Assembly (NCBI RefSeq): GCF_019316905.1
Contig: NZ_CP079216.1
Coordinates: 2,976,001 to 3,040,000 of the forward strand
Direction: 5' to 3'
DNA length: 64,000 nt
DNA from: Tessaracoccus palaemonis
Lineage (GTDB): Bacteria; Actinomycetota; Actinomycetes; Propionibacteriales; Propionibacteriaceae
Shown: positions 31,520 through 33,007 of the stretch, in pieces
Position numbering within the stretch: position 1 is the stretch's first letter
How the letters are laid out: each line of letters begins with the position of its first letter
Notes under the pieces: model-generated
What the model was told of the DNA's origin: nothing
Database searches by the model: none
The model's input: only the letters and a program-made list of their open reading frames with translations
Translations under genes and position numbers: made by a program

Positions 31520-31551
31520 AACCGCCCCCGCTCTTCGGAGTGGGGGCGGTT
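31520..31551 (+). terminator. bidirectional terminator with UUCG tetraloop
   Basis: A 14-bp stem (AACCGCCCCCGCTC paired with its near-complement, one G-T) closes a TTCG loop in the very stable c(UUCG)g form and is followed by TCTTT. An outer GACGC/GCGTC pair surrounds it. It lies between the late operon and the opposing RelA/SpoT operon and likely ends both. Confidence 0.88.
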
Positions 31552-31565
31552 TCTTTGCGTCAAGA

Positions 31566-31847
31566 TCAGTCAGTCGCTGCAGCCGCAGCCAGGATCCTGT
31601 TCAGCGTATCTTCGAGAGCCGCGGAGGGGGCCGTGAAGTAGTTCGCGTGCGTGATTCGGATCGTGTCCAGCGAGTCTGAACCGACGAGAACGATGTCCAT
31701 CCAAGCCGAGTCGCGGAACTTGCGCTCCACCTGCTGGTATGACTCGACGGCGGCCGCGGCGTCCGTGCCGAACTCCAACGTCTCAACGAGATGCCCCGCG
31801 TGGTGGTCGTAGATCAGCAGGAAGTGCTTGACCTCATCATTGCTCAC
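31566..31847 (-). CDS. small partner of RelA/SpoT-domain protein, putative antitoxin (93 aa)
   Basis: The start overlaps the end of the synthetase gene by 11 bases, so both are translated from one message. The protein is a compact alpha/beta type: HFLLIYDHHAGHLVETLEFG, VERKFRDSAWMDIVLVGSDS, and IRITHANYF at 67-76. I recall similar small proteins in actinobacteria but not a proven role. Pairing with an alarmone synthetase suggests an antitoxin that binds the enzyme, as in toxSAS systems. It could instead be a regulator or accessory subunit. Confidence 0.6.
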   Translation of the reverse strand: MSNDEVKHFLLIYDHHAGHLVETLEFGTDAAAAVESYQQVERKFRDSAWMDIVLVGSDSLDTIRITHANYFTAPSAALEDTLNRILAAAAATD

Positions 31848-32565
31848 GTGTGTCCACCTCCTTATTAAGGGTGTAGTCGATCAACTGTAGATCGCGAAGG
31901 GCCTCGGTGACAAGCTGAGGAAGCTCTTCGCCGCTCTCGTGCTTCGACACCAGGTGCGAGATCCCCCGCATGGAACGCTGGAACGCGCCTTCGCCATCCT
32001 GCTTGTAGTTCACCCCTTGGATGCTTGACTGTTCCTCAACCAGTAGCGCCCAGCGGTGCATAGGTTGAGTTCGAATCTGTACCTCGATGGGCTTCGGGGT
32101 TCGTCCATACTCGGCCACGACGTGCAGAGCACGGTAACCGGAAGCTCGGGGGGTGGTGATGTAGTCGATCTCCTCCAGTATTGGTCGGCGCCGCCGGAGC
32201 CACTTCGCCACGTTGTAGACGTCGTCCAGGGAGCTCACGACGACACGGCAGCCTCCGATGTCGCGCATCCTGTCCACGGAGCATGTGGTTTCACGCTCGG
32301 TGACCTTCTCAAGAATCGTGCTCATGCGCTTCAGCCGTTGCGTCACCTGGGCGTCGATCTCGAGGCTGCGCACCGCCCAACGGAGGGAGTTGTTGGCGCT
32401 GACGAGAGGCTGGCTGAAGCTTGCTCGCCATCGCGTGATGCAGTCAAGGACGTCTCCGAGCTCTTCGTCCGTAAGCGTCCGATCACCGCGGGCGTGCTTG
32501 CGTAGGCGGCTGCCGGCCTTCTTAACCTGGTTGGCGCTTGGCTGCGGTGCGACGACTAAGGCCAT
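31837..32565 (-). CDS. RelA/SpoT-domain nucleotide pyrophosphokinase, putative toxSAS
   Basis: The 242-residue protein holds a complete RelA/SpoT synthetase domain without hydrolase or TGS parts. Seen residues are K79, S82 and K87 in RLKRMSTILEK, D102 in RDIGGCR, Y144 in GYRALH, and E161 to T166 in EVQIRT with H170 after it. These correspond to ATP/GTP-binding and Mg sites of (p)ppGpp synthetases. Phage homologues such as Phrann gp29 act in exclusion, and toxSAS toxins inhibit growth by making alarmones or pyrophosphorylating tRNA. It is the outermost prophage gene, antisense to the late operon and next to the host junction. Confidence 0.82.
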   Translation of the reverse strand: MALVVAPQPSANQVKKAGSRLRKHARGDRTLTDEELGDVLDCITRWRASFSQPLVSANNSLRWAVRSLEIDAQVTQRLKRMSTILEKVTERETTCSVDRMRDIGGCRVVVSSLDDVYNVAKWLRRRRPILEEIDYITTPRASGYRALHVVAEYGRTPKPIEVQIRTQPMHRWALLVEEQSSIQGVNYKQDGEGAFQRSMRGISHLVSKHESGEELPQLVTEALRDLQLIDYTLNKEVDTREQ

Positions 32566-32581: not shown

Positions 32582-33007
32582 GTGGATGAAGCCGACGCGC
32601 AGACTCGGCTGGTGCAGGCAGCTGTCCATGGGTATAACCACCATGTACAGGTGGGAGCTGGGACCCTGTCCACGACCCACTCGCACTCGGCCTCCTCCAC
32701 CATCGACCGGCTCGCCTCCCGCGTGGCCCAGGGCCGGGTGCTCAGCATCGACGACGCCATGCGCCAGATCGCCCACCACATCGACTTCATCGTCCACGTC
32801 ACCCTGCGCGACGAGGCCTGGCGGGGAGGCGTGAGGTCACGGTTCGTCTCCGAGGTGCGCCAGCTCACCGGGGCAATCGAGTCAGGCAGACCGTCGACGC
32901 ACCTCGTCTACCGGAAGGCCACCGAGACGTCCTCCGAGGTGTTCGCACCCGAGGCGGCGATGTCCGCCGAGCTCGCGCCGTTCATGAGGGCCGGATCATG
33001 GGGGTGA
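32582..33007 (+). pseudogene. 3' remnant of tadA/cpaF pilus ATPase, cut by prophage
   Basis: Only the C-terminal ~115 residues of a TadA/CpaF-family secretion ATPase remain, from GTLSTTHSHSASSTIDRLAS through IDFIVHVTL and the final strand-rich tail. The Walker A and B and N-terminal domains are missing. The in-frame start at 32582 adds unrelated residues that belong to phage or junction DNA. The stop overlaps the TadB start, as expected in a tad operon. The rest of the gene should lie beyond the left end of the prophage. Confidence 0.8.
32600..32690. other. inferred right prophage attachment region (attR)
   Basis: Similarity to TadA/CpaF begins at about 32663 (GTLSTTHSHSASS) while the RelA/SpoT gene ends its start region at 32565. 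The junction between phage and host DNA must fall in this interval. The segment CCATGGGTATAACCACCATG just before the homology has partial dyad symmetry and could be part of the integration core. The exact core cannot be fixed without the left end. Confidence 0.5.

What the first reader, a model, noticed from the sequence alone, without database searches (positions are those of the whole stretch)
31566..32565. Prophage-borne RelA/SpoT synthetase with a co-encoded small partner: candidate toxSAS / phage-exclusion module
Seen: a synthetase-only RelA/SpoT domain with intact nucleotide and metal residues (K79, D102, Y144, E161), overlapped by a 93-residue gene and placed at the prophage edge, antisense to late genes and bounded by a UUCG terminator. 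Known: toxSAS toxins and mycobacteriophage Phrann gp29 use such domains in growth arrest or exclusion, each with a neutralising partner. Inference: this pair protects the lysogen from other phages or stabilises the prophage. The partner sequence does not resemble any antitoxin I can name.
Basis: partly seen in the sequence, partly recalled or inferred. Interest (0 to 1): 0.82.

Follow-up and report, generated by a model that had tools for sequence, protein, structure and literature searches.

The report
Two-gene CapRel-type toxin-antitoxin in prophage
At one end of a virus genome lying dormant in a bacterium sits a two-gene module that closely resembles a known anti-virus alarm, a poison enzyme plus its separate safety catch; it is a new member of a documented kind, with a consistent small change in the catch.

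Summary
Window 31837-32565(-) encodes a 242-residue RelA/SpoT synthetase with intact active-site residues, overlapped by 11 bp by a 93-residue gene (31566-31847, -). Both lie at the attR end (window ~32654) of a ~40-kb serine-integrase prophage inserted in a CpaF/TadA-type ATPase gene. The toxin's best sequence and fold match is CapRel-SJ46. This is an unfused CapRel toxin-antitoxin pair, a form already reported as usual in Actinobacteria. Most likely it pyrophosphorylates tRNA once phage infection releases the partner; function was not tested. Two details seem under-described. (1) The YXXY neutralisation motif of fused CapRels is T-H-x-x-Y-F here; in a toxin-seeded scan of viral contigs the first position is His in 12 of 12 split and Tyr/Phe in 44 of 44 fused systems (one main lineage split, not repeated events). 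(2) The region that holds anchor-1, which contacts a known trigger, is about 15 residues shorter. New member of a known kind; moderate interest.

The parts
31837..32565 (-). unfused CapRel-type toxSYNTH toxin, 242 aa
   Evidence: Pfam RelA_SpoT 8.3e-22; PADLOC PDC-S33 3.7e-51 on profile 5-223; phrog_4773 5e-40; AF2 pLDDT 90.5, Foldseek best hit CapRel 7ztb E 3.5e-13
31566..31847 (-). partner: stand-alone CapRel antitoxin (pZFD-type) domain, 93 aa, GTG start
   Evidence: PADLOC PDC-S33 6.5e-8 on profile 262-332, matched by 14 of 14 aligned homologues at E up to 0.1; phrog_4773 267-336; hhalign to fused CapRel C-termini E 1.7e-9
31635..31652 (-). neutralisation motif of the partner, T66-H67-A68-N69-Y70-F71 (HXXY where fused CapRels have YXXY)
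31857..31863 (-). Shine-Dalgarno AAGGAGG of the partner, inside the 3' end of the toxin gene
   Evidence: read from sequence
31884..31913 (-). weak promoter-like match inside the toxin gene, upstream of the partner
   Evidence: consensus match 9 of 12; 1 found, shuffles mean 0.2; not evidence of function
31520..31556 (+). intrinsic terminator of the late genes, CUUCGG loop, convergent with the module
   Evidence: -29.7 kcal/mol, z -6.3
32654..32655 (.). attR junction of the serine-integrase prophage
   Evidence: left flank ends and right flank starts at the same site of the uninterrupted gene, 2-bp overlap
32654..33007 (+). C-terminal remnant of the interrupted CpaF/TadA-type ATPase gene (host side)

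Best explanation
The module is an unfused (two-gene) CapRel-type toxin-antitoxin system carried by the prophage next to attR. Shown by sequence: the first gene is a toxSYNTH enzyme of the CapRel branch, and the second is the CapRel antitoxin domain as a separate protein, its start lying inside the toxin gene. Inferred: in the lysogen the partner sits on the toxin with its H67-A-N-Y70 motif in the ATP (pyrophosphate-donor) site between R77 and R107 and keeps it silent. When another phage infects, a phage protein binds the partner and pulls it off. [quoted passage not shown] Some prophage stabilisation is also possible.
For: Both proteins match consecutive parts of the same two profiles of fused proteins; 14 of 14 aligned partners hit PDC-S33 (E up to 0.1, best 4.6e-10). 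Profile-profile against fused CapRels: toxin E 4.5e-52, partner E 1.7e-9, the partner's THANYF on the fused AYPNYF. Best PDB match of the toxin by sequence and by fold is CapRel-SJ46. The tree puts the window toxin in an all-split 8-row clade (SH-aLRT 97) inside the CapRel branch, PhRel apart (100). R77, K79, D102, R107, Y144, E161 invariant in 13 of 13. Two-gene order kept in the 12 distinct split systems. Same slot, between lysis genes and integrase, as Phrann gp29/30 and WST1. Low, cargo-like G+C. Mechanism from passages of PMC9712102, PMC11782079, PMC11559606.
Against: No functional test was possible. The partner's predicted fold has no significant PDB match (CapRel at rank 5, E 0.76, TM 0.40). 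The partner profile finds nothing relevant in the PDB by sequence, and against SJ46 alone hhalign gives probability 14 (E 0.0019). The first Tyr of the YXXY lock is His here, and Y352A makes CapRel-SJ46 toxic (PMC9712102 passage), so the exact lock is not proven. The anchor-1 region is shortened, so the known trigger interface may be missing. In a smaller tree the split of CapRel from PhRel plus SAS had only 70/99 support. The complex could not be modelled.
Confidence: 0.82

Rival explanations
1. A toxin-antitoxin pair of the same family whose main role is prophage maintenance (addiction), not defence against other phages.
For: Sits at the att end of a prophage; separate antitoxin gene; a weak promoter-like match before the antitoxin gene.
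Against: Published relatives, fused CapRel-SJ46 and unfused Phrann gp29/30, act in defence. The N-terminal half of the partner is variable (mean top-residue frequency 0.54 for residues 8-48 against 0.76 for 51-72), as a sensor surface might be.
Confidence: 0.2
2. An ordinary small alarmone synthetase making (p)ppGpp, with an unrelated small gene behind it.
For: It also matches SAS models and structures, e.g. NCBIfam YjbM at E 2.5e-18 and several solved SAS.
Against: The YjbM score is 66.6 against a curated cut-off of 320; the tree separates it from the four SAS of relatives included; the partner is homologous to the CapRel antitoxin domain and stays beside the toxin in relatives.
Confidence: 0.05
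3. A decaying remnant with no present function.
For: A decayed copy of the same pair exists in a relative (G004, L008), and in one viral contig (L081) the toxin ORF ends early.
Against: Both window genes are open, with the conserved residues; the nearest homologue L004 is an open pair with 66% and 65% identity.
Confidence: 0.04

Closest known systems
Unfused CapRel/ATcapRel of Actinobacteria (PMC9712102, Extended Data Fig. 1 and 2a legends; figures not seen)
   [quoted passage not shown] actinobacterial; in the tree the window lies in an all-split clade of the CapRel branch
   Different: No sequence of the published unfused example was on hand for a direct comparison
CapRel-SJ46 (fused, Salmonella phage SJ46, PDB 7ZTB/9ERV)
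   Same: Toxin domain 30% identical over 84% of the query, same fold, matching catalytic and donor-site residues; C-terminal domain aligns with the partner via fused relatives
   Different: Fused versus split; AYPNYF versus THANYF; 96 versus 78 residues between the toxin's conserved W and the first antitoxin strand
PhRel/ATphRel, Mycobacterium phage Phrann gp29/gp30
   Same: Unfused, toxin then partner, between lysis genes and integrase; gp30 also has His, THSRYF; reported prophage defence (review passage)
   Different: Different branch of the toxin tree (100); partner shorter (71 aa)
FaRel2/ATfaRel2
   Same: Two-gene toxSAS with a pZFD-like antitoxin (PMC11782079 passages)
   Different: According to that paper ATfaRel2 has YXXY and looks circularly permuted relative to the CapRel domain; no sequence compared here

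Membership tests
CapRel toxSAS (unfused form) | toxSYNTH domain closest to CapRel | tested here: met
CapRel toxSAS (unfused form) | adjacent antitoxin gene homologous to the CapRel C-terminal domain | tested here: met
CapRel toxSAS (unfused form) | tRNA 3'-CCA pyrophosphorylation and toxicity | not testable with these tools
   inferred from the family
CapRel toxSAS (unfused form) | activation by a phage protein binding the antitoxin | not testable with these tools
   known for the fused CapRel-SJ46 (passages)
CapRel, fused form | toxin and antitoxin in one reading frame | tested here: not met
   two ORFs in different frames
CapRel, fused form | YXXY neutralisation motif | tested here: not met
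   HXXY in the window partner and in 12 of 12 split systems, 32 of 33 non-fused rows; Y or F first in 44 of 44 fused, Y in 5 of 6 fused
PhRel (Phrann type) | toxin groups with Phrann gp29 | tested here: not met
   separated at SH-aLRT 100; weaker in the smaller tree, 70/99
FaRel2 | toxin groups with FaRel2; permuted antitoxin | not tested
   no FaRel2 sequence in the tree
housekeeping SAS (RelP/RelQ type) | groups with chromosomal SAS; passes their curated model | tested here: not met
   66.6 bits against a cut-off of 320
Phage-exclusion system | protects a lysogen against other phages | not testable with these tools
   inferred from relatives

The most novel reading that the evidence does not exclude
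Split CapRels are not simply fused CapRels cut in two. They use a histidine lock (T-H-x-x-Y-F) instead of the tyrosine lock, and have a shortened anchor-1 region, through which CapRel-SJ46 grips a known trigger. They would therefore be held and released differently: a separable antitoxin pulled off by, or traded to, a phage protein, rather than a hinged domain clamped open. Lone copies of the same antitoxin in a phage contig and beside an integrase could then be mobile counter-defence.
Probability: 0.3. Interest if true: 0.6.

Novelty: new member of a known kind. Interest (0 to 1): 0.4.

Why it matters
It identifies the small partner that could not be named and places the pair in a family with a worked-out mechanism, so its function can be tested directly. 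It also shows that the YXXY lock described for fused CapRel is a histidine variant in nearly all split relatives seen here, including Phrann gp30, part of a reported defence system whose trigger is not known. How two-protein CapRels are triggered is open, and this pair, with a shortened anchor-1 region, is a clean case.

Tried and rejected
The partner as a member of another antitoxin family: no Pfam hit up to E 1, only irrelevant NCBIfam matches, no PDB sequence match (profile, two irrelevant at E 2 and above). BLAST of the partner against phage records found nothing at E 0.1 and 4 plasmid records (a Vibrio gene with no toxin identified, and cyanobacterial and Acetobacter proteins), so the main link came from profiles. 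The fold search of the partner was not significant in the PDB; in viral models the best hit, an unnamed 84-residue protein, reached E 1.5e-3 with TM 0.66, not pursued. The HXXY/YXXY difference is not many independent events: the fused label needs only 2 changes on the tree, so it marks lineages and cannot by itself tie the motif to fusion. Exceptions: Acetobacter fused THSHYF and G134 unfused AYPHYF. The partner-seeded scans lean towards His. The toxin-seeded scan (best 80 of 149) was run for that reason, but its seed was made of split toxins and 10 of its 12 split contigs are the ones. Its 56 'distinct' toxins were told apart by exact difference in the first 80 aligned residues, so close copies remain. 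PDC-S33 rings in 341 of 394 genomes because housekeeping RSH match it, so that tally was not used. A search for cpaF, prophage and attB gave one paper, by its listing off the subject. 'HXXY' with small alarmone synthetase and antitoxin: 0 papers; 'HXXY' and 'histidine' do not occur in the text of PMC11782079. An alignment figure in PMC9712102 that includes ATphRel and ATcapRel was not seen and may show the residue.

Full report
Observation. The synthetase has the named residues, and R77, K79, D102, R107, Y144 and E161 are invariant in the 13 aligned toxins. The partner begins with GTG inside the toxin gene, nine bases after AAGGAGG, so the two are probably translated together. A strong CUUCGG hairpin with a T-run ends the convergent late genes.

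Setting. The window is 2976001-3040000 of a single 3.2-Mb contig. The upstream + strand genes are phage: a RuvC-like resolvase and an exonuclease, then head morphogenesis, scaffolding, tape measure and endolysin genes. A serine recombinase gene with Resolvase, Recombinase and zinc-ribbon domains starts 24 bases inside the left end. The left flank is the N-terminal part of a T2SSE (CpaF/TadA-type) ATPase gene and the right flank its C-terminal part. Both match the uninterrupted gene of G021 (96% and 95% DNA identity), meeting with a 2-bp overlap; in G016 the overlap is also 2 bp and in G011 it is 3 bp. The prophage is thus about 40.07 kb (2968585-3008653), and the toxin's start codon lies about 90 bp from attR. 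On a circular phage map the module lies between lysis genes and integrase, as Phrann gp29/30 and the WST1 pair do. Its G+C of 61.2% is extreme for the window: 1 of 630 sliding 1-kb windows is as low, and that one overlaps the module.

Identity. The toxin matches phrog_4773 (5e-40, positions 8-235 of 353) and PADLOC PDC-S33 (3.7e-51, 5-223 of 349). The partner matches the downstream part of the same profiles: phrog_4773 267-336 (0.0016) and PDC-S33 262-332 (6.5e-8); also phrog_22117, of unknown function (3.2e-5). All 14 aligned partners hit PDC-S33 at E up to 0.1. Against a profile of five fused CapRels the toxin profile aligns at E 4.5e-52 and the partner profile at 1.7e-9 over 79 columns; against SJ46 alone the partner link is weak. 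The best PDB sequence match of the toxin is CapRel-SJ46. The AlphaFold2 toxin model (pLDDT 90.5) finds CapRel first, E 3.5e-13. The partner model (pLDDT 84.2; two strands, helix, strand, helices, a short helix at 68-71 over the motif) gives no significant PDB hit; CapRel is at rank 5 with E 0.76. So the identification of the partner rests on sequence profiles and gene order, not on fold.

Relatives. The nearest is an uncultured Arachnia locus (66% and 65% identity, same order), near a serine recombinase gene. In 96 related genomes (the window's own included), toxin and partner occur together in G000, G024, G035 and G041; G004 has a decayed copy; G010 and G017 have a partner but no toxin match. 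In 394 genomes of the class, 13 match the partner profile at 1e-5. Of 13 viral contigs found with the partner, 12 have a toxin ORF before it (in L081 it ends early) and one (L078) has none; L074 and L076 are copies of one sequence. From the toxin side, 80 of 149 loci were kept; they hold 56 distinct toxins, 12 split and 44 fused, none without the antitoxin domain (L177, counted as a duplicate, showed none). Ten of the 12 split contigs are those. A tree of 78 toxins puts 49 of 50 fused rows in one clade (99), PhRel apart (100), and the window in an all-split clade of 8 (97) (quick method, SH-aLRT only, long branches L031, Acetobacter, IME1320).

Two differences from fused CapRel. First, the motif. 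In CapRel-SJ46 Y352 and Y355 of AYPNYF block the ATP site, and replacing either makes the protein toxic (PMC9712102 passages). The window partner has THANYF. In the toxin-seeded set the first position is His in 12 of 12 split rows and Tyr (42, three of them read by eye) or Phe (2) in 44 of 44 fused rows. In the mixed set it is His in 32 of 33 non-fused rows and Tyr in 5 of 6 fused rows (L037, AYPNYY, read by eye). Phrann gp30 has THSRYF. Because the fused label needs only two changes on the tree, this is a lineage mark, not repeated evolution. Second, the spacing. From the invariant W172 of the toxin to the first strand of the antitoxin there are 66-81 residues in the 16 split pairs measured and 88-96 in the 5 fused proteins, and the split partners have only 3-10 residues before that strand. 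In CapRel-SJ46 the anchor-1 helix at 270-279, in this region, contacts the trigger Gp54 (PMC11578894 passages). Split systems therefore probably meet their triggers in another way.

Mechanism. By homology, the partner blocks the pyrophosphate-donor site; [quoted passage not shown] Released toxin would pyrophosphorylate tRNA-CCA. Phrann gp29/gp30 is reported to defend against several unrelated phages from a prophage (PMC9262239 passage; the original paper was not held). PMC9712102 states that CapRels are usually unfused in Actinobacteria (passages). The pair is thus a new member of a known kind; its trigger, target and protective range are not known.

Noticed in passing
window 32654-33007 and genome 2967503-2968585 (left of window): The prophage interrupts a CpaF/TadA-type secretion/pilus ATPase gene; G021, G011 and G016 have it uninterrupted at this site. 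This may switch off Tad/Flp pili in the lysogen.
   Followed up: partly
L078 5001-5246 (viral contig): A phage contig carries the CapRel antitoxin (THANYF) with no toxin found in the 10-kb locus: possible counter-defence antitoxin.
   Followed up: partly
L021 1426-1719 (G017) and L019 1486-1776 (G010): Partner genes without a toxin, one near a gene with a NO VEIN C-terminal domain (PF13020), one beside a phage-type tyrosine integrase.
   Followed up: partly
L008 1471-2235 (G004): A decayed copy of the same toxin-antitoxin pair in a relative.
   Followed up: no
L090 1730-2998 (Acetobacter vaccinii plasmid): A fused CapRel-like protein with THSHYF (His lock) and extra C-terminal sequence, outside the main fused clade: perhaps a separate fusion.
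   Followed up: partly
L031 1375-1788 (G134): An unfused pair with AYPHYF (Tyr lock), the only such non-fused row; long branch.
   Followed up: no
window 31884-31913 (-): Promoter-like match inside the toxin gene that could give extra antitoxin transcripts.
   Followed up: no
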